Of a stretch of 64,000 nt of DNA, positions 18,932 to 51,959 are shown in pieces (within the stretch, counting starts at the first letter, position 1; each line of letters starts with the position of its first letter). Below the pieces are notes generated by a model. It was given only the letters and a program-made list of their open reading frames with translations, did no database searches and was not told the origin of the DNA. Source of the DNA: Deroplatys truncata (taxonomy: Eukaryota; Arthropoda; Insecta; Mantodea; Mantidae); NCBI GenBank assembly GCA_030765065.1, contig CM060990.1, positions 673,288,118 to 673,352,117 of the forward strand. Direction: 5' to 3'. The position numbers and the translations under genes are program-made.

Positions 18932-18950
18932 ACTTAACCTAAAAAAGACC

Positions 18951-19831
18951 TCCTACTAGTGACAACAAGAATTTTACCCTTAATTCTGTCAGCAATAAGA
19001 AGAGAATGCTTGGTATGCTTGCGTCACAATTACTCTCATAGAAAGTTCGAATTTCATTTACATCAAGGACCACTTAGCTCTTTAATAATTGATTAAATTA
19101 GCAAAACATAATAAGTAACATAATCTTACCAAACGGACGGGTAATATATATTCTATGGCTTTTTTACAAGTGTTTCCAAACATAAAATAATAGGGAATCT
19201 TACTCCAAGTTTTCCTAAAGGATTTTTCTTTTGAATGGCATAATGATTTTAATTGGAAGCGTTTCTTGAAATTTGAGAAATAAAATTGTTGAGACATTAG
19301 TGGCATTAATGTTGGAACAAGATATAGGAAAGTAATTATCTGTCTGTATATGCAACCAAGAAAGCTTAAAATGGACTAGGAGAACTACTTGCTTGAGTTT
19401 GTTAGGTACGACATGTTTGAGGTGAAGGTTTTCTTGGAGAGTGACCTTGCTTCTCTCACTGAAACTAGAGGGTACATTATGCATGTTGCCAGGATCACCA
19501 CTACAAGGGTGACCCTCGTTGAGAATTCTTTGATTATATACTTATACTGATGGATATAAAATGTGGCCCATAATGGAATGAAACTCTTTATGTTGATACC
19601 GACATATCTAGCCAAACCCCCTGTCAGCGTGACCATCTCTGTTTCTTGAGTATAATACAAGCCACTGGATTTTAGGGTACTTTACCTCTCCCAAAATGTA
19701 GCCGAACTGCAAGGCAGTTGTCTCTGTTCTCACCGAGCACCATTAAGGCAATGCTTCATTAAATTTTGGCGACAAGTAAAATATAATATATAAAAAGCAT
19801 AGAAATAATCTCGCTGAAAAAAGTTGAAATA
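18951..19831. other. Intergenic, no gene recognised
   Basis: Several overlapping minus-strand ORFs of 74-91 codons, none with a recognisable domain. Possibly the remains of the LINE upstream region, but I cannot show it. Confidence 0.35.
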
Positions 19832-29689: not shown

Positions 29690-30025
29690 CCTAACCTAAA
29701 GCTAACCTTCCGTGAATTCAGAAACCTAAACCTAACCTTCCATGAATTCAGAAACGTAAACCTATATAAAAAAAAACTAAACTTAACCTAACCTCCCATG
29801 AACCAGAAACATAAGCTTAGGAATGCGCGCTCGCTTCGCTCGCATGCTTTGATGTAACCACTGGTAACAAATTAAATATATATAAGTAAATCAGAAACTA
29901 AGCTTATATAAAAAAACTAACCTAAACCTAACCTTCCGTGAATTCAGAAATGTAAGCTTATATTAAAAAAAAACTAAACTAAATCTAACCTTCCGTGAAT
30001 TCATAAACCTAAGGTTATATAAGAT
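29690..30025 (+). repeat. Interrupted repeat with CCTAA/CTAACC and TCCGTGAATTCAGAAA units
   Basis: The blocks TAACCTTCCGTGAATTCAGA and CCTAACCTAA recur at least five times in diverged form between 29,690 and 30,020, separated by A-runs and by one GCGCGCTCGCTTCGCTCGC insertion. CCTAA is the complement of the insect telomeric TTAGG unit, but the repeats are interrupted and short, so this is a local satellite-like cluster and not a telomere. Confidence 0.65.
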
Positions 30026-31828: not shown

Positions 31829-32587
31829 GTCACCTTACTCTAAGCTAGTGCTAGAGGATGACAGGGGGGTTTCACCATTAGATGGCAATGAGCACTCTGC
31901 TTTACGGAATGGTCAATTTTATTAATTCAGTATTCTAGTGAGAATGGCTTGACCAAACATGATTAGGAATAACATACAATAAACTCCCGTAAGGGATTTA
32001 CCTTGTGTAGACACGATGCTGTTGAGGTGTTCAGGCAGTCAGAGAAGTTAGGCCGGGGCGAACCGTTGAGCCGGGAGCGAGAACGGCTCCGGAGTCAAGT
32101 AGCTTCGGAGTGATAACTTTGACCAGTGTGACCAGAAACAGGACACACCGTCAAAGGCAATACCAGCAAGGACAACCCACGAACCCCGACTCTGTGAACC
32201 TTTATATAGTTTGTGGCTTCCTGTGGGTCATCTCCTGTGGGATTCCTAAGCAAAACCGGATTTTCTAGAACATTCTATCTGATGCACATCCTCTGAGCGA
32301 TGTGCAAATCTGCACGTAGGTTCGAGGAAGCTGATGTAACTATTATTCCCCAAGTTATTCCTAGAGAATTATTCGCGGAAGGGGTTAGCCACGTACATCC
32401 TGTTACACGCTGGCTGTCCCATCTGTGCGTCAACAAGATTGCGAAATGTGAGAAAATGTAAAGTTTCAAGAAATGTCTACTTTTATCCAAAATAATGAAG
32501 TGTATATATAATTTAGTCCTAAATAAAGAGGAGTCCCAAAAATGTATGTCTGAACCTCTCTGTGGATCCTTATGTTCCTCAACGGCA
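31829..32587 (-). repeat. 3' LTR of the giant element
   Basis: A direct copy of 51,196-51,959 in the same orientation. On the minus strand it begins TGCCGTTGAGGAAC and ends GGTGAC. It carries the TATA-like CTATATAAAGG at about 32,200-32,211 and AATAAA (plus-strand TTTATT at 31,918-31,923) in the order expected for U3-R-U5. The boundaries are set by where similarity to the other LTR stops, plus or minus a few bases. Confidence 0.93.
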
Positions 32588-34166
32588 TTCGTGACATATC
32601 CCCAACGTCTAAAAAAGTCGCCAGCCTCGGCAAAAACAAATAAAAAACAACAGGTAAATAAGAATCAGCATACTGAAGGCGGCATGCTACAAATAATGTA
32701 CATAAAAATTCATGAATACATAATATAGATAAACATTGATTAATAAGTGACTAATGTATAAGTGCTCTATCAAGAGTACATAGAGATAGAGACACAATGG
32801 ATTTAACATCAAAATATAAGAAGACCACTCAGTGGTACAAAAAAAATGAAGTATTAAAGACGCAGCCAGAAGGGTGGAGTCCACAAAAGAATTACAATTG
32901 TAAAGAGTCGTTCTCGGAAATGTGACACTCCTAAGTGATAGTTTGTATTATAATACATCACAATTACAAATGCAAAAGAAAACATTACAATAACAAATGG
33001 AAAATACGGAATACAAAGTTGTCTTAACGTTACAAATGATTAAAAAAAGTAGTGTTTCAAAAAAAAGAAGAAAAATACCTGAAAGGAAAATGGGAAAAGG
33101 GTGAGAAAAGGAGAAGGGGTGAGAGAGAAACAAAAACAGATCAAAGGAAGGGAAAACATAGAAAGAAAAGGGCAGAAAGAAATAAGTAAAACTAGGGAGA
33201 TGATGACATGGGGGGGGATGCGCACACACCAAAGTTCAGACACACCAAGCGCACTCTTGTAGTCAGTTTTGAAGACAAATCACAAGTTTATACGAGGACA
33301 CACGCCCATAAAACACTAACACTAGGACACAGCCATGTGTCATAGATTGTTGCACATCCAGTGCATGATGCGTAGTGACGATGTTTATAACAGTAGGATT
33401 CACAAATATGCTTCAGAAGCGTCCGATGGCAAACAGAAGTAGGGACAGGGTAAAGAATAATGTACACCCCATCCGTGCTGCGTGATGCAGTCTTAAGTGC
33501 AAGTCCATGAAGAAACTGAACAGGGGGGCCCTCGACCTATCAGCCCTGAGGCATCTCGAGACGTCGGGGCATCCACAGAAAAAGGGCCTCTGGGCCCATG
33601 CAGCAGCACGTCATGCAAGGGCGTTGTCCATAGTGCAAAAACAGGGCGCGTGGCGCTCCAGGTGTCATTGGTGTATTCTCAGCCGTGCAACAAAGGAAAC
33701 AACAAAAAATTAGAAGTTAGGGCAATAGAGAAGGGAGAAATGAGAGGAAATACTATACAAGGAAGGGGTATAGACTAAAATCCGGGGGGGTGATGACGGA
33801 GAAAGGAAAGAGCTAACATATAGTAAGGAGAACCAAACTAAATAACGTAAAAAAATTATACAGGGGGTTGACCTTTTTAGATCAATAGGACAGCTAACTA
33901 GTAATATAATAATGGGAAAGCATAACATAATACTAACACCATATATAAAGGGGAGACATGGGTGATGTAAGGCAAGCAAACAACAAGGAAAAGAACTACA
34001 TAAGGTCACAATGTAAAACTAAATTGCTTGCGAATAGTTATAACATTACCATCACCGATGCCTGACCTTTGTATGTTGATTTACAATAAAGACATCGTAT
34101 ACAGAATAAAAACATGCCGGACTACAAGCCGGGTATGTATAAAAACATACAAATGAAGTATTCATG
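32588..34166 (-). other. 3' region of the giant element, no gene recognised
   Basis: About 1.6 kb between the second env and the 3' LTR. Plus-strand ORFs here (for example 33,497-33,778) run antisense to the element and have no domain. I could not find a convincing polypurine tract next to the LTR; only a weak GTTGGGGATATG is near 32,600. Confidence 0.5.
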
Positions 34167-35962
34167 TTACACAGAGAGATTAACGTAGGCCGTACCCACT
34201 GGGCGAGGCCGCATGTATGTCTGATCCACCGGCTGAGGGAAAGTATAAGTGGATTCCTGCGACCGGGAGACTTTGTATAAGGGTATGGAGACAGGGAAGG
34301 TTTCTGGAATAGACAGAAGGGGTACAGGTGCGTGAGGGGCTATATCATCGTATTCTTGTCGAGACCTGGAAGTGATGGATGAAGGAGGGCTATGAGCAGG
34401 TAAGGTAGACGACCATGCCGGAGTACTACTCCAACAAATAGGTCGAAATCCATTAGTGATGTCCAACCAAAGCAAGTAGGCGATCACTAAGATATTTAAA
34501 GCAAACAGTATTCCAATTAAAGACATGGTAGTAATAGTCTATTTATCTCAGTTGTGCCATTTGGAGTTGTAACATTCCTCCAAAGACGTATACATGGGGT
34601 AAGCAGCTGTTTGAAATCCCGGAAGAATTGTGGTGGCAATAGAGGACCAAGATGCTGGAATTAATCGGTGAATTGTAACAGAGGGATTAACTGTTGAAAA
34701 GCATTGTCGGGGAGGGACAAGAGTATAATGAGAAGTTGTAAGATTACATTGACAGGGAATACGAACTCGATAGGCTCCTATTTCGCTATGTAAGAAAATA
34801 GTTCTATGAGAATTTGGACAATGTTCCTGAAAGGAAGGAACATGAGTAAGAACAAAAGTGAAAGGGTCAGATAGGGATACCATAGGTTGTTGGTTATCAA
34901 TGCAAGAACTTTGGACATACATGAGATAAATTTAAAGCAGACGAACCATGCAAGATAGCGGCTGCACACGGTGTAAATAATGCTGATACTCCATAAGCGG
35001 GGGTAACTAAGCATAGACTAGATTTAGATACGTCACATTGTGGTAGCAAAATTCGAAAGCTAGTGTGGGTGTACAAGATGGCCACCGCACGTCCTTCCAA
35101 CTTGATCATACAAGTTTTGTCAAAGAACGCAAAGGGCGTTGGCGTAAAGAAACGTCCCACTACTTTTTGTACATCCGCTTGGAGTAAGGGAATTTGTAGG
35201 CCCAATAGAATAAAATGTGGAGAAAAGAGGCAATCACAATCGGGGTAGTGTAATATTTACCAATGGCTTGGTTATCCCATACTAGACGATAACCAGTATT
35301 GCTACGCAATACGGTATCTAATGCAGTTTCTAATACTTGCGGTGATAGTACTGAAGGATTTAAGTAGCGTGTGACGCATGTTTTGTAGAGACGGTCCATA
35401 CGATCCACTTGATATAAAAGTTCAAATAAAGGACTGGCGCAAGCGGAACGTAACGAGATGCCACTCTGAAGATCAGTAATTTTGTTACAAAAAGATGTAT
35501 TGGATAATGTGACTGTCTAGCTTGCTGCAAAAGCCGATGCGTCGCATCATCAGAAATGTACATATTTTCTATATGCTGTTTATCAGCTAACAAAAATTGA
35601 GAACCAAAAATAGATCCATCGCCTCGCAAACGGTTATCATTGGATCTGAATAAAGATGGATAGGCATCTTGAAATGTTGAAGATATCCAATCACAAAAAA
35701 CAGAAGTACTGGCATTAATTGTGCAAACTGATGACACGGGTGGATGAATCCAGCATTGGGAAGCGAAGAACAGTACGGGAACTGAATTTTCATAAAATGT
35801 CATATTTGGTAGAGTATAAAAATCACTACCTGCTGTTACCTCTATAGGCGGCATTGCAACATGTTCGCTCCATACTTTAGGGGTTGCGCTCCAGACATTA
35901 GGGGTTGTCAGGGTGACTAATATACATAGAAACATGCTTGCAGTGGCCATATCCCCAGCCAT
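34167..35962 (-). pseudogene. Second env-like membrane glycoprotein gene, frameshifted
   Basis: About 598 codons in pieces: 35,962-35,360, then 35,408, 35,205, 34,922 and 34,526 starts. Three frame changes and at least one stop are needed to join them. It opens with a hydrophobic signal-like segment (ASMFLCILVTLTT), and a splice-acceptor-like AAGTTACAG lies four bases before the ATG. Several N-glycosylation sites (NMT, NAS) and many Cys suggest an ectodomain. Its middle and end align with the first env: FFTPTPFAF, QCDVSKSSLC, LFTPCAA and LIPASWSS against FLSTPFAW, QCDPFKTGLC, LFTPLCA and LIPTGWSS. An ILFALNILVIAYLLWL segment is the likely membrane anchor. The RTKR site of the first env is replaced by NRLR-GDG, which also reads RGD (35,618-35,626). 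Confidence 0.75.
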
Positions 35963-36553
35963 GTATCTGTAACTTCTTAACTTACAATATAATATCAGCT
36001 CTACTTGAATTTAAGATACACATATTATCTGTAATACATAAAAATGGCTCATATAAACCTGGATATCCATAAACAAATATATCAAGGCACACAGCCTATT
36101 GATTCATCATAGAAAATTTATATGGGCACACAGCCAGATTATTTATATCATCAATGAATAAGGGCACGGTCACACAGCCTATATTTATTTATCATGTTTA
36201 CCCTTATTTCTCCGTACGGATAAAGAAGTTAGCTATACTAACTTTCTGAAATCAATTACTCATTCCACCTTGCAATCCACTGGGATCTCGCGATACACCC
36301 TTGGACAGTTGCAATTGGGAAAGTAAACTCAATATTCACAATAGGAGTTGATTCTTAGGATCTCACGATACACTAATGAACCAACATCCCTTAATTCATG
36401 TACTCATTAAGTATTCAATAAAACACAAGTAACTTCCAAGAAGGTCTTGCGACGTCTCCCTGGCAGAAACAGTGTATCCCAAAAAACAATACAGAAAAGT
36501 AATAAATCTACTAATACAATCCTACCAAATATCTGACAAACCCTAAGGTTTAA
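35963..36553 (-). other. Inter-env spacer of the giant element
   Basis: Non-coding spacer upstream (in element sense) of the second env. It includes repeated GGGCACACAGCC/GGCACACAGCC motifs on the plus strand between 36,090 and 36,180. No gene. Confidence 0.4.
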
Positions 36554-37340
36554 GGCTGGTTCACAACCAACGAGAACGGTAACCAGAACGAGAACGGGAA
36601 AGTTGAAATACATGTATTCAAATGGGAGTGTCCACAACCGACGGGAAGCCTTCCCGGGCCCCGGGAACGGGAAGAAGAGTTGCCCAACTTTTAACTTTCT
36701 CGTTCTCGTTCCCGGGCACGGCATATTAGATCCCTATTGTGCATATTAAACTCTTCACTCTAGAGGTTATTCTAAGCGGTCGTAACATGAAACAGCCACT
36801 AGTGCTCTCTATAGTCCAAGCTGGAAACATGAAACTGGAAGGAATTAGTAGTAAATGTGCTTCCTAACCTCATCCCGACACCCGCAAATCTAATCAACGG
36901 TGGTTCCTCTGGTGAAGGAATCATTTGTAGTTTATTTATATGCAACTCAAAACTGGTTATTACCTAAAAACAATGGCAAAAGCTACAAAGAACAGCTAAA
37001 ACCAGTGGAAATGAAAAAAAGAATAAACAATTTTAATGTATGCCATTAAATAGAGGAATGAAAGTTTGGCATAAGTAGAGGAATCGTAAATGTAATGAAT
37101 ATGCATTTAGATAATGTTTACTCTATGGAATTCTGATGTTGGCTTGGCTAAATTGGAAGTAGGTGAAAAAATGTCATTGGTCAGTTAAAACAAATGAAAT
37201 CCCAATGCGCAAAATCCACTTTCACTTTGTGATCGATATGCATTCCCGTTCTCGTTACCGGGCTGTTGTGAATCAAAATTTCTTGCTTCCCGTTCTCGTT
37301 TCCATTCTGGTTACCGTTACTGGGTGGTTGTGAACCAGCC
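36554..37340. mobile_element. 787-bp TIR element inserted between the env genes
   Basis: The left end GGCTGGTTCACAACCA and the right end, inverted, GGCTGGTTCACAACCA are identical over 16 bp and continue as imperfect repeats rich in GAGAACGG/GTAACC. TTTAA flanks both sides (36,549-36,553 and 37,341-37,345). There is no transposase. It inserted after the retroelement was in place, or before its last round of copying. Superfamily uncertain: the TTTAA or TAA-type target suggests PIF/Harbinger or a piggyBac relative. Confidence 0.85.
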
Positions 37341-37556
37341 TTTAAGCAGTAAAAATTATTTTATTAAATCAGAACAGTTTCTGAAAGCTTTTAGTCAATC
37401 AGAATAATTTCTTAAAGCTGGATAATCCACAGGAAAATAACAGGAAGCGGTGAGTTATCCACTTCCGGTGAAAAGTGCTAGTCTCATAGTTTCACGCGTC
37501 ATAGGAAAATACTTGCATTAAAAAAAAAAAGAAAAAGAAATTAAATATCATTACTT

Positions 37557-39608
37557 TCATGGAGAAACTGGTCCCGTTTCAGGTATGGGTTGCATAGGCA
37601 TGGGTGGAATCCTCCGGGCGGCTACTGGCAGTGTAGTAAGCAGAAGAACACTACCAGTCGTAGTTTCAGCATTAGTATTCACTTCAGGGCGACGTACTTG
37701 CCGATGGAAAATAATCACCTGCCAACACAACTTAAGAACACGATAAGCCACAGCACCAATAAAGACTAATAATAGAATACCAAAAATAATCACAAAGGCG
37801 TCATAAAACACATTAGGAGTTGTTCCAGAAGCCATAGTACCTGGTAATCGTGCAGTAATTAGTAGTTCTGGACGGCGAAATAATATAACCGCCAAAACAA
37901 TGGTTAAAAATGTAGCCCATATCATCAATAAATGGGTCAAAATCGGGGATTCTTTTGACATTGAATCCGAACTAGGTAAAGAATGTACATAGGGGCGATG
38001 AGATAGGTTAAGGTGGGGTACGTCGATTATCCATTCGGAGTTCAAGCATTGAGAGAGATTGGTAAAAGTTAAATGTTCTGAACTGGCCGAGGGAGAAATT
38101 TTAAGAGATGCTAAGGAAGACCATCCTGTCGGAATGAGATGAAGTGTTTGTGGTTCAGGGATAGTGAAATCAAGGCAGGGGAAGCCTTTAGGAATATGTA
38201 CTACCTGGCCTAATTTAAGTTAGCAAGAGCAAGGGAGGTTAAGTTGTAAAGCCCCAGGGGCATTGGGTGGTAAGTTTGGAATAAGACGAGTGACGTTATT
38301 ACAGATTAATTCAATAGGTTCTAACGGGTTAGTAATTACGTACTCATCTCGTTCAATTTCTGTTATAAGCATCTCATTAGCAGTATGACATTGAAAGGGG
38401 CAGAATTCATTCATTTCCGCTGTGGTCATGCCACTAAGAAGTTTAACTGCACACAAGGGTGTAAACAATAAGTCGTCACTAAATCGTGGGATATAGCAAA
38501 GGCCTGTTTTAAAAGGATCACATTGCTGCATGGCAGCACCCATAATAGGGCGTACAAGAGAACCACTAACTGCCACGAAAGCAGTATCGTGAAGTGTAGT
38601 AGAAGTAGAGGAACCCCAAGCAAATGGTGTACTGAGAAATTGAATAAGTTCCCATCGGGAATCTTTCTGTCTAACCGGAATTGTAACAGAGACCAAAATG
38701 TAATTTGCACTGAAGGAACAGGATGTAATTTCAAGATCAAAATAACAATGAATCTCAGAGGTATCAATAACTAACTCGAAATTAGTACTTGCAAGACTAC
38801 GTTTCAATTGTAGTAAATCATGTTCAAAGACGTCATAGGGAATTATAGAAAGTGGGAATAAATGATTTCGGCATAATAACATGGAATCCATGTCTTTTAG
38901 GAAAATTACGGTACGTACAGATCTTTGGGTATTTCGCAAAATTTCTCATAATGAAAAGAATTGATGATCAGTTATTTGATTCAACTCGTTGCATATGGTA
39001 GCAAACGAATAGTTAGCAGTGCGCAGTGCAGTTTTTAATCGAGTATTAATTTTATCAAATGACTGAGCAATTTGTTTACTATAATCATTTAGTTTATCTC
39101 TGGTGCTAGAAAACCAAGCATAATCTTCAGAAATAATATGTTCAAGAAATGTATAATGATCTAACAGTTGGCGGTCGGTAGCTGCTAAAGCATTGATTTG
39201 ATCTGAAGTAGCGATGTCACAGCAAAAATTAAAAATGTCACCAAAGAATGTAATTCCGCGTTTTGTGCGTTGATGATCCATATTGGTAAAATTGAAAACA
39301 GCATATGATAACTTACGCAATTCTCGGTCAAGGGTCAATCCGATAAAGCTAATATCATCTTCCAATTGTATCAGTTGCTGTAGGCGTGACCTTCCAGCTG
39401 GTCTTGGAACTGTCAATTGTAGGTCATCCACTCGTTCACGTAGGACTTTAAAAGTCAAGGGAATGGAAGCCTGATACGCTATAGTTTTTCAAAGGCGTTT
39501 CATAGTGGCTTCTGTTGCTATGCGTATCGGTTGATCAAGAACTTCTGCCATGGTAATAGAAGATATCACCGTCAGGAAGAAAAGTGGAAGCACGTGAAGG
39601 TATGACAT
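37557..39608 (-). pseudogene. env: F/errantivirus-type envelope gene, three in-frame stops
   Basis: One frame of 684 codons from ATG at 39,608 to TGA at 37,557, interrupted only by in-frame stops at 39,489-39,491 (TGA), 38,946-38,948 (TGA) and 38,220-38,222 (TAA). There is no frameshift. Layout: a signal peptide with a VLPLFFLTVISSI core; an N-terminal fragment; a furin-type RTKR (39,258-39,269) followed at once by GITFFGDIFNF, the place and character of a fusion peptide; a heptad-like helix; a Cys-rich ectodomain; and two hydrophobic segments near the end (ILTHLLMIWATFLTIVLAVI and AFVIIFGILLLVFIGAV). This matches baculovirus F and gypsy Env architecture, a class I fusion glycoprotein. A TTTTTCCAG splice acceptor abuts the ATG, as expected for a spliced env message. 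Inactive as it stands. Confidence 0.88.
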
Positions 39609-39618
39609 CTGGAAAAAG
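39609..39618 (-). promoter_or_regulatory. Candidate splice acceptor for env mRNA
   Basis: On the minus strand the sequence TTTTTCCAG lies immediately before the env ATG, with a pyrimidine-rich tract ahead of the AG. Env of gypsy-type retroviruses is expressed from a spliced RNA. The donor is not identified. Confidence 0.5.
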
Positions 39619-41624
39619 TTTATAATAACATGGTAAAGAAACGCAAAACGGAATTGGAAATAAAACAAATTGAATTGAATTGAAAATAATCAGAAAATAA
39701 AATAATAATTTGTTAATGATACAAAGCAATAAAGTAACAGGAATGATTTATAACAAAGGACAATAAATATTTAAGAGAGAAAAAAAATTTAAATATTAAT
39801 ATACAAATATATTGGATTAAAAATGTAATATTACAGTCGAAAGCCAAGAAGTGGTAATATTAACAATAACAAAAAAATGAACGTAACAATAAGGAAAGAA
39901 TTATTACTAGAATTAACAATTATTTAAAACAATTGCTAGGGGAAATTTCAGTGTATACGAATGTGTTAAATGTCAGCAGGCATCGGTTTTCAAAAACAGG
40001 ACGTGGTTGTCATAGAAAAATCCCGTAGATGCTAAGTGCAAGTTCGCCTGCACCTAACAACGTAAGTTCGCGTGTATTTGACAGCGATCAAAGCATGATC
40101 GTAGCTGTAGTTTGTGTAATATGCAGCAAACTATAGGTACAAATAGAAGTATTGAGAAAACTTAAGGTTTGTAGTTAGTTAAGATTACGTATAGTACACA
40201 TTCATTTAAAAATATATGATATCAGTATTGTGCAAAAAGTTGAATATATTGTAACCATATAGTATTTGAGGTATAAAATTACATGTATAATAGATTGTGT
40301 ACGGTAGTAAGACAATAATTAAGGGATAGAAAAGCACATGTTAAAATAAAAAATGTTGTTTGATTAAGTTTTATATAAAGATTTTAGGTAATACAGTGAC
40401 AGAAAAACATAAGGTTACATGAGAGTTTAACAGCGAAATACAAAATAGAATACGAAAATATTGGTATCTTATGGATAGCAGGCAATAATAAAAAGCATTA
40501 AATATTATGCTGCTGTATAATTGTAGAGAAAACAGCAAGCTGTAGGAACATGTTAAGTCAAGCATTTCGTTGCTTGTACCGAGGAAATATGGAAAGGAAG
40601 CGATAAGCACATCCGCTGAGATATAGCACTCCGTCGGACAGTACATCCATTACATAGAGAAACTGTAAGACGCGCACTACGGATGCCTTGTGTGGCTACT
40701 GAAAAATAATAACTTTGAAATTAATATAAACATTGTGGGTAATTAGCATAATTATCAAAGAAGCGAACTAGTGACCGTATTAAGTGAACTTTTAAGTATT
40801 ATTGTTGTTTGATTTTGTGAAGGGAAGAGAAGAGAAAGTGAGTCATACCAGAACACAAGTGTTCTTATGTAGTTCAGTTTGAAAGTGAATCCAGCATGGC
40901 TAATCAAAAATCGTCTACTATGAGGTAGGTGTAAGAATAGTAATTTATAGAGAAAATGCAGTGAAAACTATTTGAACTTAAATGAAAGTGAGAAACATAC
41001 AAATGGACTGCTAAAATTTAAAATATATGAATCGTAAATATGCGCAAAGTTGTTGCGAAAGAGAGAAAAAGAGATAGATACACATGCTCACGAAATTATG
41101 TAACGCAAATAAATGACAAAGTCAATGTTGCATGAAGCGTACCTAGGTAAAAGAAAATGGTAATATCGGAGATAAATTCACAGAATAATTCACATCAGAT
41201 TTAGAGAAAACGAGAATTTTTGGGAGATTTATATAAACGTTTTCGATAGTTACTAGATAACAAACGTATGGCGCAAATTTGGATAATTAGCTGAATATGT
41301 TGTGACAGAATCTAGCGTATGTCGTATGCATAATGAATGAAATCCAAAGAAGAAGAATACGTAAAAATTATTGTTAAAGTTTGTATGTGGTAATAGTGAT
41401 TGTGTAAGACTTTTTCTAATAATGCATTATTTTTAAATTTTGAATTGTGATTGACATTGTTTGTGTGTAATGCCGTTAAAGTGATATTACAGTTTATCAT
41501 AGTTCATTATTTTAATTACAAATCATGATTTATCCATATAAAGAGAATATGAATATGTAACAAGTACATAGACTCGTCTACAATTTTATTTCATGAATAT
41601 ACATGCAGTATATTTAGTAAGTAG

Positions 41625-41625
41625 T

Positions 41626-41700
<75 letters not shown>
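41625..41700. repeat. (ATT)n microsatellite
   Basis: About 76 bp of uninterrupted ATT trinucleotide repeat inside the spacer of the giant element. Confidence 0.97.
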
Positions 41701-41702
<2 letters not shown>

Positions 41703-42139
41703 AAATTGTTGAAATGCGATATACTTAGCTTGAATTAGAAGTTTGATCTTACTGTTATGTGAATTTGGATAATTTTAAAGTCTATGGGTTCTGATTGAGA
41801 AATAATTGATACTTTTTACTTTAAATGTATATAAGAATTTGTTTATTATTTTCTTTTTGATTATTGCAAATTAGATGAAATGAACAGTATACTTAGCGGT
41901 AAATTATTAATTTGTTTATTGGTAGCGGGTTAAGGGTTCAATCCTTTGGATTTTTTTTTTTAAATTCTGTACCGTAATTATAATTAACATTCTTATATCC
42001 ATATTAGAATTTGGACATTTTTACAAGAGAAATATCATATCAGAAGCATTGAATTTATAACAAATGCATTGTTTATATTAAAGTCAATGATATGAATAGT
42101 GCAATTTTAAAATTAATATAGTGGGGTTTATCACAACCA

Positions 42140-42276
42140 TGATGTATTTTATGCTTTGTAAGTTCACTTCGATGTAATCATAAAAATTAATTATTAGTAA
42201 TTATGATAGTATTTTATGCTTTGTAAGTTCACTTCGATGTAATTATAAAAATTAATTAATTAGTAATTATGATAGA
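42140..42276. repeat. 67-bp tandem duplication
   Basis: TGTATTTTATGCTTTGTAAG, TTCACTTCGATGTAAT and AGTAATTATGATAG recur as two aligned units, with one short TTAA expansion in the second. Non-coding. Confidence 0.9.
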
Positions 42277-42897
42277 TAAAGATTATTTAATATGATAAAT
42301 ATTTATTGCAAATATTTATTATTTATCTCTTCATATATCGAAACTGTAATGCATACTAATAATTATTTATTTCATTGTGTATTGTATATTAGTGGCGTGT
42401 TATTTATTTGTGTGAAAAGATATTTCATAATTGTATTTATTAAGAGCTTACGACGTATAATAATAAATTCCAGTGCTAATTTATTCTGATTAAGGTATGT
42501 GTATTATTTATTATAATAATTATTTATGCAAGTTATAGTTCAGTCCATATCGCGTAAAATGTATAGAGTTATGACAATGCAATTAAAAGTTATAGGCAAT
42601 GATTATAATCGAATTATAAGGAATTAAATTAGCTATCATTAAAGATTATGAAGGTATTTACTGATGAGTATGATCAAATAGTGACCATATAAATAGTATT
42701 CATAATTATTTAAATTAAGTTAAATTGAATTATCACATCATTTAATAATTATAGTGCAAAGATAGGTTTATATAGCATCTAAATTAAAGGTTATTTCAAA
42801 CATTAATTAGGGTATAAACTAGCATAGGTACTGCAAAAAAATAATGCAATATAAAGATGATTAGACCGCATACGACAGAAATAGAAAAGAAGGGAAA

Positions 42898-45220
42898 TTA
42901 TCTAGTCCTAGGTGGTGGGGGAGGAGGATGTGGTCTAGGCATGCATGGAGAATCATTATTAGCGCAAGGATAACTAATAGTTTGATTCAACCATAATGTA
43001 GATATAGTAGGGGATTGAGAAAGGTGATAACGTGTCATATGACTTCGAATCATAAATAGAACAGAAATGATCGGAAATATTACCAATAAAATAATGTAAC
43101 ATACTATTTTTAAAATTCCGTGTATGTTAGAAATTAACGGTGGTTTAGGAGAAGGTGAAATGTTATTTATAACTAATGGTGGGCTAGTAAGAGGTGTATT
43201 GGTTTCTCCAATTAACGGTGGATTAATAGTAGATAGACTGTTCCTCACGGTGCTAGTTGTAACTATTTTAGTACAAAATGGAGGTTTATAACCGGTGTCG
43301 CAATGACATAGATGTGTATTAGTACAGATTCCATGTCCATTACAATGACATTTGGAAGTTCCAATGGTGGCAACTGAGACACAAGTTTGATTGATACATA
43401 ATTTATTCTTACCGCATTTAGCATCATTAGATACAAGTCCCGGTTGAGGAACCTGTAATCCTAAGTCGACAATAGCTGTAGAACATTTATCATAAGTAGG
43501 GTACGTTAATGTATGACCAATTCGGGAATAGTGATGCATTCCGAACTGTATTTCATTACTTTGATGACTGCATTGTAAAAGTCCACACTGCAAATCTTTC
43601 AGTTTGCATGGTAAATAGCGACCTGAAGGAAAGTCGTAACCGCAATTACCATTAAGATTTCCACGGTCATTATTTTCATAGCATTGTCTATCCATATTTC
43701 TAGCAGTTTGTCCCCATAATTTTTTACATTGATTGGTATGAGTAGTACAGGCATTTTTATAACAAAACGCTCGTCCGCTGTTACAGCGAGTACCATCCAT
43801 TTTATAAACGTCTCGACAGTATTCTGAAATACCGTCACAGGAATCAGAAATATCACATTCAGAAGCGGCGGGACGCCACACTGTGCCTTTAATTTTCGGC
43901 AAACAGGCCCGAACATCACAACATTGGCCGGTAGCACAGGAGGCATTCTGATGTAGGAGATAAGTGTTAGGGTTACAGCAAGGATTATCTATATCACATT
44001 CTTCACCAGATTCTACAAAACCATTTCCACAAATTGGACCTAAATATATTTTCAGTGGTTTATTGTGAAGACAAAAGTCAATATGTCGATTTAATGAATT
44101 ATGTAATTCGTGTATATTGCATGGACTCCATTGGTTAGGTATTGTAGTGCCTAATGAAGTGGTCATTATACAACAATGTTTACATTGACAACAATCAGCA
44201 TCATGTTCCATTCCAAGGCTATGACCTAATTCATGTGCAATTGATACAGCTGTGAATTCTTCATTAAGTATATCATCGCTTATAATTGCACCCGAGTGCT
44301 CATATGTACACATGGAATAGGGATATGCTTCACCGACAACTGTGTTTAAAATTCATTGCAGTAAGTAACTGTGCATGATCGTGAGGAAATGCTTATAACA
44401 AAAATTCTCTGCGATAATGCAAAAAGTCAACTAACACCTGATGGCTATCATCAGTAATATATATCTGATCATGAGTTGACCAAACAATAACACCTATGAG
44501 TGCAATTGAAATATTCAATGGTGCATATAATGTATGAACAAGATTAGTTAAGTGCAAGCAATGCTGGCTGACACTGTAATGGTTGAGTGTTAATTTGCTA
44601 TAAAGTGAGTTGTCCATGACAAGGAGTAATTCTACTATACGTGTCATACTGTTGGATATTGTAGGTATTTTAATATCAGTTACATCATGTCGGAAACGAG
44701 AGTTAATATGAGTCTGCTTAAACGACTTACGTGCTTGCACATGGGCACACGTTCCGTTATATTTGAGCGGCACTAGATTATCGGAGCCATGAATGGTTAG
44801 AAAACTTGGGAGTTCATGAAAATGTTGATTCAACAAGGATTGCTTTGGTAACCGTAAGACCTGAGTTCCATTATAAATTATACCTCGTAAATCTTTACAG
44901 ATGGATATCGCAACCCAGGAATTATGTATTCCACAGATTTTTCCTTGGGGCTGACAAACGGAGGGGATTTCGGTATTCACCAAAGTATTTAATTTAATAT
45001 GCTTTTCAAAAAAATTATGTGATGCAAGTACATCATGCAATCGAAGATCTACCGTGTAATTTCTGCCGTGTAGGTAATACACAAAAGTAAAATTAGTCAA
45101 TTGTGTGTGTACATTCTTAGGAGATTGAAATGGTCATATCTGCACATGAGAATAATCATGAAAGCATAGAGATAATTATGGAAAAGCGAAGAAAAAACAA
45201 AAGAATAAGCTAAGCTTCAT
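42898..45220 (-). pseudogene. ADAM-type metalloprotease-disintegrin captured by the retroelement
   Basis: A complete ADAM layout of about 774 codons without introns. ATG at 45,220 opens a hydrophobic leader (LSLFFCFFFAF). The prodomain follows (QLTNFTFVYYLHGRNYTVDL). The catalytic domain starts near RIVELLLVMDNSLYSKL and has a perfect zinc site HELGHSLGMEHD (44,200-44,235), so the protease residues are intact. A disintegrin domain follows (CGNGFVESGEECD through the SECD loop), then a Cys-rich region, an EGF module (CHCNGHGICTNTHLCHC), a membrane segment (VCYIILLVIFPIISVLFMI) and a PHPPPPPPRTR tail resembling SH3 ligands. Lesions are all in the first third: TAA 45,176-45,178, TGA 45,134-45,136, TAA 44,393-44,395 and a frame change near 44,346-44,350. 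From 44,313 to 42,898 it is open for 471 codons. ADAMs shed membrane proteins and can bind integrins. The role here is unknown. Confidence 0.92.
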
Positions 45221-45968
45221 AGGTTGAAGGGTGGGTCGCCCTACGATTTGAAATCATTTCATCCTTCCTCACAGGGTGGGTTAACAATAGAATCACAGGT
45301 AACAGTGGATTTCTTCCACGTGCATTCTGCACAAAGAACGTGAGAAAAAAATAGAGTGATGCCATCTGTGACACTCATCTAACGTGATGTGAAGTAATTC
45401 ACAGTAGTTCGTGACGTCATACTGTATATGAGTCTTAAGTGACTGAATTAAATGATTTATGTACTAATTGTGCAAACTTTAATGTTGTGTTTAACAGCAT
45501 CGTAGTTGGGGGGTAGAACGAATAGCTTCTTTAAGGGAGGGTCACTACCGGCGATGGTGCAACTAAGGCCATCGACAGTCCAATGTACAATCGGATAGGG
45601 GTGAATCTTATATTATTAATTATATCCTTATAATCATGTTGCATTAAACAATAGGATATTCTTAAAACTATTATGGACCATTCCCTAATTAACATATGGA
45701 TATACTTATATAATATAATGCTATAAATGCTTAAAAAAATTAAGAGGAAAATAAGTCACACAAAACATGCATATATGCTGATTTAGTTCATAGACTAATT
45801 AAAGTGTTGTCATAAAATAGTTGAACTTGCTTAAAATATATAGATTAATTAATGTTATGTTAATACTAATCAGAGGGTTAAAAGGTAAGCTAATAAATGC
45901 AATAGTAAATTATGCAGTAGTAGTCATTCAAAAATTATTTATCTACCTCTCATACTGTAGGGTAAATG
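45221..45968 (-). other. Spacer between integrase and ADAM
   Basis: About 750 bp without a recognised gene. On the minus strand a TTTCAAATCGTAG (about 45,241-45,253) could be a splice acceptor for the ADAM message, but it is weak. Confidence 0.4.
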
Positions 45969-47967
45969 CTATTTTCTTTTATATGGGGCATAATAGGGAT
46001 ATAAACGGGAGACATGCACCACTATTTCCTTGATTAAGGGTCCTGTGGCCTGTCTCACCTTGTAGTTAACTGGTGATGTTTGTTGTACAATGACATAAGG
46101 TCCTTGAAATCTATGCAAGAGTTTAGTGGTTTTACCTTTCTTGTGTGTCGGCGTGAACAACTTTACTAATTGACCTGGTGAAAGTTTAAGGTCACGCCGT
46201 TTCTGGTCAAAAATTCGTTTATCTTTAGCCTGACGACGTGAAATATTCACCTTGGCAATTTCATGTGCCTGACGAATACTATCTTGGGTTTCTTTCACGA
46301 AGAGGTTATCAGTGGTGTGTTTCAACTGAACCTCTCCAGGCAAAGTAGGGTGGCGGCATAAAATCAAGAAGAAGGGTGACATCCCTGTCGATTCTTGTTT
46401 ACTGGTGTTATAAGCAAACACAACATGTTGTACCGCGACATCCCAATCATCCTGTTCTGTTGAAGTATAGTGTGAGATCATGTTAATGATAGTTTGTTTT
46501 TTTCGCAAAGACCATTACAGGCGGGGTGATAGACAGTAGTAAACATTGATTTAACTCCCATGGATGCCAACAGATGTCGTGTGACCTCGCTGAGGAGCAC
46601 TTGACCCTCATCTGTAAGCAACATGGCGGGTGCCCCGTGGCGACAAATGATGTTTTGTAATATAAATGAACTACATGTTCTATAGAACCTTTTGGAATTG
46701 GTTTCACTTCCGCCCATCTACTAGCAAATTCAGTTCCTACTATCAACATAGTGTTGCCTGATTTAGACTTACGGATCGGTCTGACCAAATCTAGGCCCCC
46801 AACGCTCTCCGATGTAATTAATGGGGATTGGCTGGAGGAATCCAGCTGCCTTAACATCCTTTGGGTCTTTCCGCATTTGGCAACTCGGACATCCCTTAAC
46901 ATATCTTTCTATGTCCTTCCTCATCCCAATCCAGTAGTACCGAGAATTAATTTTTGTAAAGGTCTTTGTGAAACCTAAATGACCAGATAAAGGATCGTCA
47001 TGGCAGGAAAATAAGATTTCCTGTTTTAAATATTCTGGAATAACCAACAAGTGAAGTGGTCCAGTTGCTCCTGCATTTTTCCTATAAAGCACACCTGATT
47101 TTAGGCAAAAGGAAGCGGCATGTCGCCGTAATTTAGGAGATCCTGTGTCTGGGTCTTTCAATTCTTGGATAAGGGGTGCGATTTGAGGGTCATTCTGTCG
47201 TTCTTGTGCTACCTCTACCGGTGTGAGCAAGCAAGTTAAAAGATCATCCATTTGTTCGAGCACGGGTGGTTTAGGCTCATCAACAGGGAATCGCAACAAT
47301 GTGTCTGCATCTAAATGCCTTGCTCCTGACTTATAAATAATGGAATATTGGTACTCCTGGAGCTTTAAGGCCCATCTTGCCAGTCTATCAGTTACATCTT
47401 TTAAATTACGCAAGTAACAAAGTGCGTGATGGTCACTGACAATGTTAACAGGGTAACCATACATATAGGGTCTAAAATGAGTTAAACCGTAAACAATGGC
47501 AAGAAGTTCAAATTCAGAGATACTATAGATTTTTCATGTTTGTTCAATGATCTGGAAAAATAAGCGATGGGATGAAGCTCTCCATTAATATGCTGTAATG
47601 ATGTGCATCCAACACCTACAGTGCTGGCGTCCGTGTCTAATTCTGTGTAGGCGTCAACCTGGTAATGTGGTAATACAGGGGCGGTTGTCAAACATTGTTT
47701 CAGACTGTAAAAGGATTTTTGATGTTTCTGAGACCATTCGAATTCCTGATTTTTACGAGTAAGGTCATGTAATGGTTGTGCAATTGAGGCAAAATTTGAC
47801 ACAAAACGTCTATAAAAACTGAAAAATCCCAATACTTTACGAACGTCTCTTACTGTTTTAGGAATCGGCAGATTAGCAATTGCTGTAATCTTATCTGTGT
47901 CTGGTTCGATACCTTTAGCGGACACTTCGAATCCTGGAGCTTTACGTGGGACATGCCGAAAAAGCAT
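45969..47967 (-). pseudogene. pol: RNase H and integrase of the giant element, frameshifted
   Basis: The region degrades the RNA strand and inserts the cDNA. Frame 47,967-47,482 has the RT connection block (VLGFFSFYRRFVSNFASIAQP) and the start of RNase H (YTELDTDASTVGVG, the DAS motif). Frame 47,464-46,769 has the SDHHAL block, then the HHCC zinc finger of integrase (CHDDPLSGHLG ... GCPSCQMRK). The catalytic acids lie in GLDLVRPI, LLTDEGQ and NGLCEK, across two frames (46,902 and 46,717). I count 35 residues between the second D and E, the canonical DD35E. Frame 46,508-45,969 holds the C-terminal domain (FAYNTSKQESTGMSPFFL, LSPGQLVKLF, FQGPYVI). At least four frame changes make it inactive. 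Confidence 0.9.
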
Positions 47968-48744
47968 TTTTGGCGTTTCACTTTAAAATTATGTTCTTGT
48001 AATGTATGAAATACATCTTCTAGATTACTCTACATTTCTGCAAATGTTGATCCAAACACCAATATATCATCGAGATATACGAGGGCCTTTTTATACCTAA
48101 GGTCACCTAACAATTCATTGGCTGCATGGGAAAAGAATCGTGGAGCATTGATCAGTCCGAGGGACATCCGGTCAAATTGATACTATCCATCCGGCGTAAC
48201 GAACAAAGTGTATTTCTTACTGTCTTCCGCTACAGGAACTTGGAAGTATGCACTTTATAAATCCAAACAACAGTACCAGCGCGATTTTCCTAATTAACTC
48301 AAGAGATCATCTATCAGTGGCAAGGAGTAGGAGGAAGCAACGGTTACTGCATTTAACTTTTGGTAGTCCACGCAGAACCAGAAAGAAAATTATCTTTCTT
48401 CTTAACCAAAACCACTGGGGAAGCCCAGCTCGGCTATGAGAGTCACTAATGATTTTTGCATCTTTCATTTCACGTACTTGAGCCTGAATAATCTCTCGCT
48501 GTGCCTGGGATACTCTATAGGGTCTTTGTCTTATGGGTGTGTCATCGGTTACTTCAATTTGAAATTCTCCGATGTCTGTTGATCCTAGTTCATGTAAGTG
48601 TGTCGCTAAAGTATGACGGTACTTTCCCAATAATGTCTGTAATCGAGTATGCTGGTCGTGAGTAAGTTGGGAATTTAAGTTAAATTTAGCGCCTTGTATA
48701 GCAACTGGGTTCAAATCTGTAGCTAACCAGTTTGCTAATTGCAC
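47968..48744 (-). pseudogene. pol: Reverse transcriptase of the giant element, stop-interrupted
   Basis: Frame 48,744-48,307 contains HLHELGSTDIGEFQIEV and the usual gypsy RT entry TPIRQRPYRVS, then GLPQWFWLRRK, where a frameshift breaks the VVxVxKKDG block near 48,390. The middle is stop-rich. The catalytic YLDD motif is present at 48,066-48,077 in a VYLDDILVFG context, typical of Ty3/gypsy. The same frame phase resumes at 47,967. Confidence 0.85.
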
Positions 48745-48838
48745 TAGGGCAACCTCATATGCTCTGGCAAGGGTGGTACCTGCGAAAATTGTCTGTGGTT
48801 CAGCAGTGTTGTTATGTACGGGGATTACACATTCTTGT

Positions 48839-49579
48839 TTAGCTGTACAAAAGACAAGTGATTTTAATATTTTTGCTTTGAATAAGTCGCATATTAGGTT
48901 CTAACATAACTCTACCCATAACATTAGGTGGGAGGGAAGCTTTATTATTCAGAGATGTAAACGGAGGTATTTTAATGTCTTGGACACACGAAGCTTTATA
49001 ACTTTCTGCTGGGTCCTCATCTGGCTCTATAGTAATTTGTGCTAGAGGGCAGTGAACTTTTTCTGTACACTCCACAGTAACAGTATTATTATCAGGCAGA
49101 CGGAGTGTGACTGAAAATATTGACAGATCAATAAGGGTTTTATATCGGTTAAGAAAATCCATCCCCAATAAAAGATAGTGGCCAAAGTCCTTATCCACTA
49201 GGACTTCCTCGGAAAAATGTATGCCTCCGATTTGAAAAGAAAAGGTAGTGGCGTACCGAACATCTAATAAGTTATTGTTCGCTGTTCGCAACGTTAAGTT
49301 TTCTGGTACAGGGTGAAGAGGGGTATTTACAAAACTGTCATGAATAATGCTATCAGCACTTCCTGTATCGAACAAAATATCGATAGACATGTTATTAGCT
49401 AATGTGCCTTTAGAAGTGAGTGTGTTTACCGGTTGTATAAGTGAGGCAATGTTTCCATTATTTGGGTTGGAGCAGGGCGTCACAGAATTTATTCCCATGA
49501 CGTTGTTTGCCCGTTTGGGGGAACCTGTTTCCGGTGGCAATTTAGAGCTACATGGCCAGGTCTCCGGCATATAAAACAA
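48839..49579 (-). pseudogene. pro: Aspartic protease region of the giant element
   Basis: An open frame of 246 codons overlapping gag in the -1 frame. The catalytic DTGS lies at residues 71-74 in an IDILFDTGSADSII context, with the second conserved block YLLLGMDFL about 60 residues later, as in retroviral aspartic proteases that mature Gag and Pol. The frame itself is intact. It ends in a stop before RT, which lies in another phase, so a lesion separates the two. Confidence 0.85.
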
Positions 49580-50870
49580 GTAGGCCTACCGTCATGTGTT
49601 TGGCCATACACATTTGTTCCCTGCCATGATCCGCGACCTTGTGGATTAGCATTATTTCTAGGATTAATGTTTCCGCTTCGATTAAAGTTACCGTGAGAAG
49701 TGAAAGAACCGCAGGTAACACCATGTCCTCTGGAACAATTAAATTGTCCCTGATTGCGTGGCAAATTATTATTTTGATTATGTTCTAATTGCAATCTGTA
49801 GTTGTCTCTGTAAACCCCGAACCTCTTGTTTTAGGTTTGCAATAGGATCAACCGGGGTTGTATTATTTACAAGGGTCACTGGTTTGGGTAGGGGTACACT
49901 AAGAAGATCCACTCGCTGAACAGCGAGATATCGAGCAGCCTCAATGCGGCGCACCAAGTTTGTGAGATCCTGCACCGTCTTAGGGTCTGCTGGGAGCACC
50001 TGTTCAAGGAGAGATGGTTTTAATCCCCACATTACGTGGCGAATACGCTCATGCTCGGACATTCCTGAATTAACCTGATCACAAAGTACGAGGATATCGT
50101 ATATATATTTTTCAGTGGATTCTGCCAAATGTTGCACCCGTTGGCGCAGACGATACTCAAGAACATCTTCATGAGCTGCCAGCATAAATGCCGTTTTCAA
50201 GGAAGCTTTGAGTTCCGCCCATCCATGTTGACCATGTCTGGGTACAAAAGTTTTGAACCAGTTAGCAGCGGCTTCCCAAAGGTAGCAAGGTAAATATTGC
50301 TTTTTGCAATTGTCATCCCAGCCATTTGCGGCTGCAATAGTCTCAAAATTATGAAGGTAGGAAGAAACGTCCTGTCCCGGTTTACCTTAAAAAATACCAG
50401 GGTCAATAAAAGGACGAGCAAAAGGTACTGTCTGAGTAAGGATGGGTTTGGTAGTTATCTGATCAAGGGCAGCAGGCCCTGCCTGAGAGGTACTAGTAGT
50501 CATGGCAAAATTATCTAAAGAAGAATCAGAATTTGAATTCTGTGGGGAAGAGAGAGGTCGTATCTCGACGTCAGCGCTAGCTATATCTCCAACACTAAGG
50601 CTTCTTTGTTTCAAAGGAAAATAAACTACAGGCTTCAACCCTCGAATCCTATGACTACTTCTAGTCTGAATTTTAAACAGATTTGTACAAATCAGCTAAA
50701 TCAGAAGATATTGTGTTAATGTCTGTAATGGCAAGACCATAAGTTTCTACATTGGTATCTAGTGTTCTCTGGTAATCAGCAAAAAGTTTACGGATATCCG
50801 AACTAACAGGACTGTCACTCTGAAATTGTGATAGCATATCCATATAATTAGGATGAAGGATAAGTGTCAA
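49489..50870 (-). pseudogene. gag: Gag of the giant element, frameshifted
   Basis: Gag would form the particle core and package RNA. The pieces are 50,870-50,673 (N-terminus), 50,638-49,778 in one phase with a single TAA at 50,387-50,389, and 49,794-49,489 in another phase. The central part (YLWEAAANWFKTF, LRQRVQHLAESTEKYIYDIL, MSEHERIRHVMWGLKPSL) fits the retrotransposon gag domain of Ty3/gypsy elements. The C-terminal piece has a CCHC zinc knuckle with C73, C76, H81 and C86 (CFICRRPGHVALNC). The slip heptamer for pro lies 24 bases before its stop. Frame changes near 50,650 and 49,790. Confidence 0.86.
49513..49519 (-). promoter_or_regulatory. -1 ribosomal frameshift heptamer CCCAAAC at gag/pro
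   Basis: On the minus strand the gag phase reads C CCA AAC and the -1 phase reads CCC AAA, exactly the X XXY YYZ arrangement for tandem slippage. It lies inside the gag/pro overlap, just after the zinc knuckle and 24 bases before the gag TAA at 49,489-49,491. The protease frame entered by slippage is open for the rest of its length. Confidence 0.85.
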
Positions 50871-51195
50871 ATGTACACCAACCAGGCATGTGGATGACTC
50901 CCAATATGCGCAAGATTAAATAACATAGACAAATTAGTACCATCCAGCATAAAAAAAGAAGACCTGTTGTGACTGCATCACATCTCATAATGTAACCAGC
51001 GGTATATAAAAAAAAGTGTAGGAGGGGTGCGGAATTGAACCGTATCTAAAAAGAAATGGAGAGCAGCACAATTTATGGGCGTCCAAATTTAAAAAGGGAA
51101 TGCTTTCATGTTACGAGAAGTATCAATAGAGGTACGGGATTGAACCGTACTTTTCAATTAAATAATATTGGAAAAGCCGGAGCCTCCACCATAAT
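50871..51195 (-). other. 5' leader of the giant element with T-arm-like hairpins
   Basis: The untranslated leader contains two related tRNA T-arm-like segments on the minus strand. At 51,131-51,150, GTACGG TTCAATC CCGTAC is a perfect 6-bp stem with a 7-base TTCAATC loop. At 51,025-51,046 there is a diverged second copy (TACGGTTCAATTCCGCACC). They may be packaging or primer-related structures, or a captured tRNA fragment. Confidence 0.5.
51177..51191 (-). promoter_or_regulatory. Candidate primer-binding site
   Basis: The minus strand reads TGGTGGAGGCTCCGG four bases downstream of the 5' LTR, the position and TGG start of a tRNA primer-binding site. The plus strand accordingly looks like a tRNA 3' end with CCA. 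I cannot say which tRNA it matches. Confidence 0.5.
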
Positions 51196-51959
51196 GTCAC
51201 CTTACTCTAAGCTAGTACTAGAGGGTGACAGGGGGGTTTCACCATTAGATGGCAATGAGCACTCTGCTTTACGGAATGGTCCATTTTATTAATTCAGTAA
51301 TCTAGTGAGAATGGCTTGACCAAACATGATTAGGAATAACATACAATAAACTCCCGTAAGGGACTTACCTTGTTGAGTAGACACGTTGCTGTTGAGGTGT
51401 TCAGGCAGTCAGAGAAGTTAGGCCGGGGCGAACCGTTGAGCCGGGAGCGAGAACGGCCCCGGAGTATAGTAGCTTCGGAGTGATAACTTTGACCAGTGCG
51501 ACCAGAAACAGGACACACCGTCAAAGGCAATACCAGCAAGGACAACCCACGAACCCCGACTCTGTGAGCCTGTATATAGTTTGTGGCTTCCTGTGGGTCA
51601 TCTCCTGTGGGATTCCTAAGCAAAACCGGATTTTATAGAACATTCTATCTGATGCACATCCTCTGAGCGATGTGCAAATCTGCACGTAGGCTCGAAGAAG
51701 CTGATGTAACTATTATTCCCCCAAGTTATTCCTAGAGAATTATTCGCGGAAGGGGTTAGCCGTGTACATCCTGTTACACGCTGGCTGTCCCGATCTGTGC
51801 ATCAACAAGATTTCGAAATGTGAGAAAATGTAAAGTTTCAAGAAATGTCTACTTTTATCTGAAATAATGAAGTGTATATATAATTTAGTCTTAAATAAAT
51901 AGGAGTCCTAAAAATGTATGTCTGAACCTCTCTGTGGATCCTTATGTTCCTCAACAGCA
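51196..51959 (-). repeat. 5' LTR of the giant element
   Basis: On the minus strand it begins TGCTGTTGAGGAAC and ends GGTGAC. It contains a TATA-like segment at about 51,571-51,582 (CTATATACAGG here, CTATATAAAGG in the other LTR) and AATAAA (plus-strand TTTATT at 51,285-51,290). It differs from the 3' LTR at about 25 substitutions and three small indels by hand count. Confidence 0.93.

What the first reader, a model, noticed from the sequence alone, without database searches (positions are those of the whole stretch)
31829..51959. A 20-kb env-bearing gypsy retroelement that carries a full-length ADAM metalloprotease-disintegrin gene
Seen directly: between integrase and env, in the same orientation and without introns, lies an ADAM with signal peptide, prodomain, HExxHxxGxxHD zinc site, disintegrin, Cys-rich, EGF, transmembrane and proline-rich tail. 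The whole is enclosed by matching LTRs. Known: Ty3/gypsy errantiviruses carry gag, pol and env and are 7-10 kb; I know of no described member with an ADAM. Inference: a host ADAM mRNA was captured and kept as an accessory gene. It might cleave or shed receptor or envelope proteins, loosen host matrix, or bind integrins through the disintegrin domain. This is the strongest candidate for an undescribed system in the window.
Basis: partly seen in the sequence, partly recalled or inferred. Interest (0 to 1): 0.95.

Follow-up and report, generated by a model that had tools for sequence, protein, structure and literature searches.

The report
Retrovirus-like element carrying an ADAM protease
A family of large retrovirus-like mobile elements in an animal (probably insect) genome carries a host-type cell-surface protease gene (ADAM) next to two envelope-type genes, and the pattern across many copies suggests that natural selection kept the protease rather than chance leaving it in one copy.

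Summary
The core observation holds. This copy is decayed: pol, ADAM and env are interrupted. The ADAM is a resident gene of the family, not a chance insert. In the host genome the ADAM query gave 116 matches (88 of 302 candidates scored), grouped into 73 loci; 41 have integrase upstream and/or env downstream, and 17 show integrase-ADAM-env1-env2. The 13 listed integrase matches at 80% identity or more all have an ADAM 2.1-2.9 kb downstream; lower ones mostly do not. At 14 loci the ADAM frame is over 700 codons with no stop in the match. Variants shared between copies lean synonymous (clearly in the C piece, weakly in the N piece); private ones look neutral. Between two subfamilies dN/dS is 0.19-0.26. 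The two element ADAMs put in a tree form one clade inside invertebrate ADAM9/12/19-like proteins. Best reading: the element encodes an active membrane metalloprotease that trims host surface or matrix proteins during spread. That role is inferred. Expression, the parent gene and other species were not tested. My library searches listed no ADAM-bearing retroelement.

The parts
51195..51959 (-). 5' LTR of the element
   Evidence: (direct repeats D1, D2, D3, D5)
51170..51194 (-). primer-binding-site-like stretch next to the 5' LTR; tRNA assignment not tested
   Evidence: read by eye
49490..50915 (-). gag pieces (Retrotrans_gag; CCHC knuckle below cut-off)
48839..49585 (-). retropepsin-like aspartic protease
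   Evidence: PF13975, PF08284
47985..48900 (-). expected reverse transcriptase region, interrupted; no RT domain match in the pieces tested
45969..47982 (-). RNase H and integrase (H2C2, C-terminal domain), in several frames
45140..45362 (-). leader region before the ADAM frame; polypyrimidine/AG stretches, length varies between copies; N-terminus of this subfamily unresolved
44393..45133 (-). ADAM: prodomain and N-terminal half of the metalloprotease domain
   Evidence: Reprolysin E 1.9e-16; prodomain homology shown for relative L075
42898..44352 (-). ADAM: zinc site and C-terminal half of metalloprotease, disintegrin, cysteine-rich, EGF-like, transmembrane, proline-rich tail
39690..42897 (-). 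AT-rich spacer; 89-92% identical among the four copies compared, against 93-97% for the ADAM C piece
37557..39689 (-). env1: one frame with three in-frame stops; furin-like RTKR followed by a fusion-peptide-like stretch; C-terminal transmembrane stretch (by eye)
36011..37556 (-). spacer that partly matches (72-83%) stretches elsewhere in the genome without other element parts; probably an interspersed repeat
34167..36010 (-). env2: second env-like gene, in several frames; two pieces related to env1's C-terminal half
31829..32588 (-). 3' LTR

Best explanation
This is an old, decayed copy of a 20-kb Ty3/gypsy-type, env-bearing LTR retroelement whose lineage captured a spliced copy of an ADAM9/12/19-like gene, most simply once. 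It has since kept it between integrase and env as a functional accessory gene, alongside two envelope-type genes. Shown: gene order, recurrence in many copies and several subfamilies, long intronless frames, long open frames in other copies, a conserved zinc site, and signs of purifying selection in the replicating lineage. Inferred: the protein is made during the element's expression as a membrane-anchored or shed metalloprotease, and cuts host surface or matrix proteins that hinder spread from producing to receiving cells (receptor removal, shedding or local matrix clearing), while env1 and env2 do attachment and fusion.
For: ADAM at the same place in 7 copies of the LTR family (window). ADAM query: 116 matches, 73 loci; 14 loci with frames above 700 codons and no stop in the match. 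A host-type ADAM query matches element copies over residues 88-726 in single frames, that is without introns. 13 of 13 listed integrase rows at 80% identity or more have ADAM downstream. Of 37 env1 loci examined 33 have ADAM before and env2 after, 17 with integrase as well (the 37 were chosen as those near an ADAM plus one). Variants seen in two or more of seven copies: ADAM C piece 11 synonymous, 5 nonsynonymous, codon positions 2/2/12, 11 reached in 0 of 2000 neutral simulations; private variants 33/115 plus 5 stops, positions 54/47/52; shared against private, both pieces, Fisher P 0.0003, C piece alone 0.0002. dN/dS to another subfamily 0.187 and 0.263. Zinc motif intact in 6 of 8 copies. 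Window ADAM and L075 one clade with 100/100 support.
Against: No transcript, protein or activity data. One genome only. All seven window-family ADAMs read show a stop or frame change somewhere. Within that family pairwise dN/dS is 0.34-0.75 (four copies), as expected for decayed copies but no strong sign by itself. For the ADAM N piece alone the shared-variant excess is weak (P 0.047; Fisher 0.16). Of 46 integrase rows typed, 23 have no listed ADAM within 12 kb, and by eye none of the other 103 listed rows has one; one such sister element (L074) has no ADAM in the 3.7 kb after integrase. One LTR copy (L007) has gag beside its LTR but no ADAM or integrase at the predicted place; it looks rearranged. 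32 of the 73 ADAM loci have no typed integrase or env neighbour. Small contigs with equal scores may be duplicate assemblies. No target-site duplication seen. Only two element ADAMs are in the tree, and the host's own ADAM gene was not seen, so the donor is unknown.
Confidence: 0.75

Rival explanations
1. The ADAM is kept mainly for adhesion: the disintegrin and cysteine-rich domains bind integrins or other receptors, and proteolysis is secondary.
For: Disintegrin and ADAM_CR domains are retained in the window and in L075.
Against: The zinc motif is intact in 6 of 8 copies, including another subfamily. The disintegrin domain itself looks shortened against host-type proteins (by eye).
Confidence: 0.15
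2. The ADAM processes the element's own glycoproteins (env1 or env2) rather than host proteins.
For: Co-occurrence with two env genes at 33 of 37 env1 loci examined.
Against: env1 carries its own furin-like RTKR site before a fusion-peptide-like stretch (by eye), so a dedicated protease seems unneeded for env1; env2 was not examined for a site.
Confidence: 0.12
3. The ADAM is a passive passenger: captured once and multiplied with the element without function.
For: All seven window-family copies read are broken in ADAM, and their private variants look neutral.
Against: Shared variants are mostly synonymous in the C piece; dN/dS 0.19-0.26 between subfamilies; long open frames at 14 loci.
Confidence: 0.05
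4. Chance insertion of an ADAM retrocopy into one element.
For: The ADAM is intronless.
Against: Same place and orientation in seven copies of the LTR family and in other subfamilies.
Confidence: 0.01

Closest known systems
Drosophila gypsy-type errantiviruses (gypsy, ZAM), Ty3/gypsy elements with env
   Same: LTRs, gag, retropepsin, RNase H then integrase order, env after pol with a furin-like site (the last by eye; likeness to errantivirus env recalled)
Burro giant gypsy-like elements of planarians (PMC6431247; passages and section 7 seen)
   Same: Giant gypsy-type LTR elements with env homology and host-type domains
   Different: That section names apoptosis- and ubiquitin-related and other domains inside one giant ORF and no ADAM; here ADAM is a separate gene between pol and env
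Bdelloid rotifer LTR retrotransposons with captured ORF3 (PMC5408684; abstract seen)
   Same: Extra enzyme ORFs (GDSL esterase, DEDDy exonuclease) besides gag and pol
   Different: Different enzymes; the abstract names no ADAM
Drosophila MDG1-group elements with sORF2 (PMC11952523; abstract seen)
   Same: Insect LTR elements with an accessory membrane protein used to pass between cells
   Different: sORF2 is a short fusogen-like protein in elements without env; here env genes plus a protease
ADAM9/12/19-type metalloprotease-disintegrins (M12B)
   Same: Domain order, zinc motif, Met-turn, place inside an invertebrate clade
   Different: Intronless, inside a retroelement, on a long stem branch (1.47 changes per column)

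Membership tests
ADAM (M12B reprolysin-disintegrin) | HExxHxxGxxHD zinc motif and Met-turn | tested here: met
   zinc motif intact in 6 of 8 copies, window and L075 among them; CCIM in both
ADAM (M12B reprolysin-disintegrin) | Reprolysin, Disintegrin, ADAM_CR domains in order | tested here: met
   above Pfam cut-offs
ADAM (M12B reprolysin-disintegrin) | Prodomain | tested here: met
   L075 N-terminal part against P0012, E 1e-14; no Pfam propeptide match or 112
ADAM (M12B reprolysin-disintegrin) | Signal peptide, EGF-like, transmembrane, tail | tested here: inconclusive
   EGF_2 17.7 bits against a cut-off of 22.1 in the window, none listed for L075; leader in L075 and membrane stretch by eye; no predictor run
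Ty3/gypsy (Metaviridae) | LTRs, gag, protease, RNase H then integrase | tested here: met
Ty3/gypsy (Metaviridae) | RT phylogeny | not tested
   RT region interrupted in this copy; no tree built
Ty3/gypsy (Metaviridae) | 4-6 bp target-site duplication | tested here: not met
   no match by eye at the ends of this copy; other copies not examined
Errantivirus | Baculovirus-F-type env | tested here: inconclusive
   RTKR plus fusion-peptide-like stretch by eye; no env or F-protein family among the Pfam matches; no protein match for one piece
Errantivirus | Three-gene 7-10 kb layout | tested here: not met

The most novel reading that the evidence does not exclude
A retrovirus-like lineage with two glycoproteins and its own captured surface sheddase: the ADAM acts as a receptor-destroying or barrier-opening enzyme, so that three host-facing proteins (protease, attachment, fusion) form one module that lets the element pass from soma to germline and perhaps between animals.
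Probability: 0.3. Interest if true: 0.95.

Novelty: new variant of a known kind. Interest (0 to 1): 0.85.

Why it matters
LTR elements are known to pick up extra genes, but I know of none, and my library searches listed none, that keeps a whole host-type ADAM protease. Here the gene can be followed through many copies and several subfamilies in one genome, with signs of selection on it, so the question of what a captured sheddase does for a retrovirus-like element becomes directly testable. The same family also keeps two related env-type genes in a constant order.

Tried and rejected
Relatives in viral contigs: no DNA matched any pattern for the ADAM and env1 pieces; two stretches matched for integrase but neither was confirmed. 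Env1 piece in the protein database: none of 121 candidates scored, but the length rule shuts out full-length envs. Integrase piece in the protein database: 2 hits at E 1e-20 or better, best 43% identity, too few to place the lineage. Host parent gene: a host-type ADAM query (P0012) against the genome gave 72 matches, 62 of 271 candidates scored; by eye they lie in or beside the element ADAM loci, and no exon-split host gene was visible. The trees (46 rows; 38 rows) placed the window ADAM loosely on a long branch; (37 rows, with L075) is the one used. Rows were picked from the 80 proteins, leaving out short, late-ranked and some long-branched ones.

LTR sampling: of the 40 LTR rows two are the window's own. 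I read predicted ADAM positions for 35 rows (34 insertions; for a few only on one side) and found ADAM in 6 insertions. The others showed no integrase or ADAM there. They look like solo LTRs, truncated or rearranged copies: L007 has gag beside its LTR, and env fragments lie near the LTRs on C3, C14 and C16:151.76 Mb. Three rows were seen only with 1.5-kb flanks. The comparison of the N-terminal pieces of env1 and env2 showed no relation.

Library searches: (0 papers; 20 of 29 listed; 12 of 12; 12 of 476; 12 of 32; 10 of 20), and for context 30 (18 of 18), 39 (20 of 34), 127 (8 of 83). No listed title or abstract start names an ADAM-bearing retroelement. The library lacks most subscription papers and most preprints.
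Full report
What is there. The window lies in a 4.29-Gb assembly, probably an insect's (my inference from ADAM relatives and flanking repeats, not tested). Between LTRs at 31829-32588 and 51195-51959 (95-97% alike) a 20.1-kb element runs on the minus strand. In its own direction it holds gag, retropepsin, an interrupted RT region, RNase H and integrase, then an ADAM (45133-42898), an AT-rich spacer, env1 (39689-37557), another spacer, env2 (36010-34167) and the 3' LTR.

State of this copy. It is decayed. The ADAM lies in two frames with an in-frame stop and a frame change between them; env1 is one frame with three stops; env2 and pol lie in several frames. No target-site duplication is evident by eye.

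The ADAM. The C piece matches Reprolysin, Disintegrin and ADAM_CR, ADAM22 and snake venom relatives of known structure, and, best, animal ADAMs at 36-46% identity, the named ones among the first 20 hits being from insects and a mite. A relative from another subfamily (L075) is one uninterrupted 775-codon frame with a leader, prodomain (E 1e-14 to P0012), full Reprolysin domain, disintegrin and cysteine-rich domain, and by eye EGF, membrane stretch and proline-rich tail.

Recurrence. LTR-guided sampling found ADAM at the same place in six further copies, L009, L028, L033, L058, L066, L070, out of 34 insertions looked at; integrase was seen before it in all but L058, whose stretch begins in the spacer (L070). 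An ADAM search of the genome gave 116 matches, 88 of 302 candidates scored, which I grouped into 73 loci. Fourteen have frames above 700 codons without a stop in the match; eight of these are a 713-codon group with near-equal scores, six of them on small contigs that may be duplicate assemblies. Integrase: 149 rows, of 10572 candidates. Of 46 typed rows 23 have ADAM 2.1-3.1 kb downstream, including 13 of 13 rows at 80% identity or more and 10 of 33 below; the other 103 rows, all below 80%, have none by eye. Env1: 155 matches, 150 of 629 scored; of 64 loci typed (the best and those near ADAM) 36 have ADAM upstream and 18 also integrase; 41 of 73 ADAM loci have integrase or env as neighbour, 32 have neither among the typed rows. 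Env2: 160 matches, 150 of 292 scored. Of 37 env1 loci examined, 33 show ADAM-env1-env2 and 17 integrase as well.

Elements without ADAM. One sister element (integrase 78% identical) was read: besides the integrase end no ORF of 100 codons or more, and no ADAM match, in the next 3.7 kb. ADAM thus marks a sub-lineage, gained in it or lost in the sister; which, I did not test.

Selection. Among seven copies, variants present in two or more copies arose mostly while the element was replicating, private ones mostly after insertion (an assumption). In the C piece shared variants are 11 synonymous and 5 not (4.1 synonymous expected; 0 of 2000 simulations reach 11), private ones 33 and 115 plus 5 stops, as neutral (34.2 expected). 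In the N piece shared are 11 and 14 (P 0.047), private 32, 69 and 8 stops. Together, shared against private, Fisher P 0.0003; N piece alone 0.16. Within the family pairwise dN/dS is 0.34-0.75 (four copies). Against L075, dN 0.174 and dS 0.933 (450 codons) and dN 0.284 and dS 1.078 (245 codons). The spacer after the ADAM is less alike between the four copies compared (89-92%) than the ADAM C piece (93-97%). The zinc motif is intact in 6 of 8 copies.

Origin. Window ADAM and L075, the only two element ADAMs in the tree, form one clade (100/100) on a long stem inside an invertebrate ADAM9/12/19-like group (100/99) (37 rows). A host-type ADAM matches element copies over residues 88-726 in single frames, so introns are absent. 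This fits one old capture of a spliced transcript. The host's own gene was not seen, so a host-specific origin is not shown.

Mechanism. Env1 has a furin-like site and a fusion-peptide-like stretch (by eye); two pieces of env2 are related to env1's C-terminal half (E 5e-9 and 1e-6 for single comparisons), the N-terminal pieces are not. I think the ADAM is an active membrane protease that clears or sheds host surface or matrix proteins during cell-to-cell passage; about 0.45 for that role by itself, and about 0.93 that ADAM is a selected resident gene. Adhesion and env processing are rivals. A splice-acceptor-like stretch before the ADAM hints at a spliced message in the window's subfamily; not tested.

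Known comparison. PMC6431247 (passages and section 7) says LTR elements can capture ORFs between pol and env and describes Burro; PMC5408684 and PMC11952523 (abstracts) give other captured or accessory ORFs. PMC13172572 and PMC12992720 (passages) on insect env-bearing elements showed no ADAM in the passages seen; PMC12440569 (first of five parts) was read for classification. No title or abstract start listed or 128 names an ADAM-bearing retroelement; most of these lists were cut. I therefore call it a new variant of a known kind.

The verdict on the observation went from confirmed to partly confirmed, because this copy's ADAM is interrupted and its signal peptide doubtful; the clade claim was narrowed to two ADAMs; the integrase-ADAM distance was corrected to 2.1-2.9 kb for the 80% group.

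Noticed in passing
36010-34167 (minus strand): Second env-like gene, related to env1's C-terminal half and found after env1 at 33 ADAM-linked env1 loci of 37 env1 loci examined.
   Followed up: yes
36011-37556: Spacer between the env genes partly matches L018, L036 and L060 (72-83%), where no other element part was seen; the env1-env2 distance here is longer than at all but one of the loci.
   Followed up: partly
L009 (C13:34926000-34931000): A second LTR-bounded copy (LTR rows 20.4 kb apart) whose ADAM is cut by foreign sequence and followed by a mariner-like transposase stretch (name recalled).
   Followed up: partly
G000 C6:198.33-198.51 Mb: Four similar env1 fragments, three with env2 fragments, tens of kb apart on one strand, perhaps a segmental duplication.
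   Followed up: no
C128, C781, C785, C795, C797, C803, C811: Small contigs with equal or near-equal scores for integrase, ADAM or env; recent copies or duplicate assemblies.
   Followed up: no
54904-56281 (+): Transposase-like ORFs near the element (recalled likeness to DDE transposases).
   Followed up: no
16221-18952 (-): Non-LTR-retrotransposon-like reverse transcriptase ORFs (recalled likeness).
   Followed up: no
29693-30020: Tandem repeats containing AACCTAAACCT-like units, resembling the insect telomere repeat (recalled).
   Followed up: no
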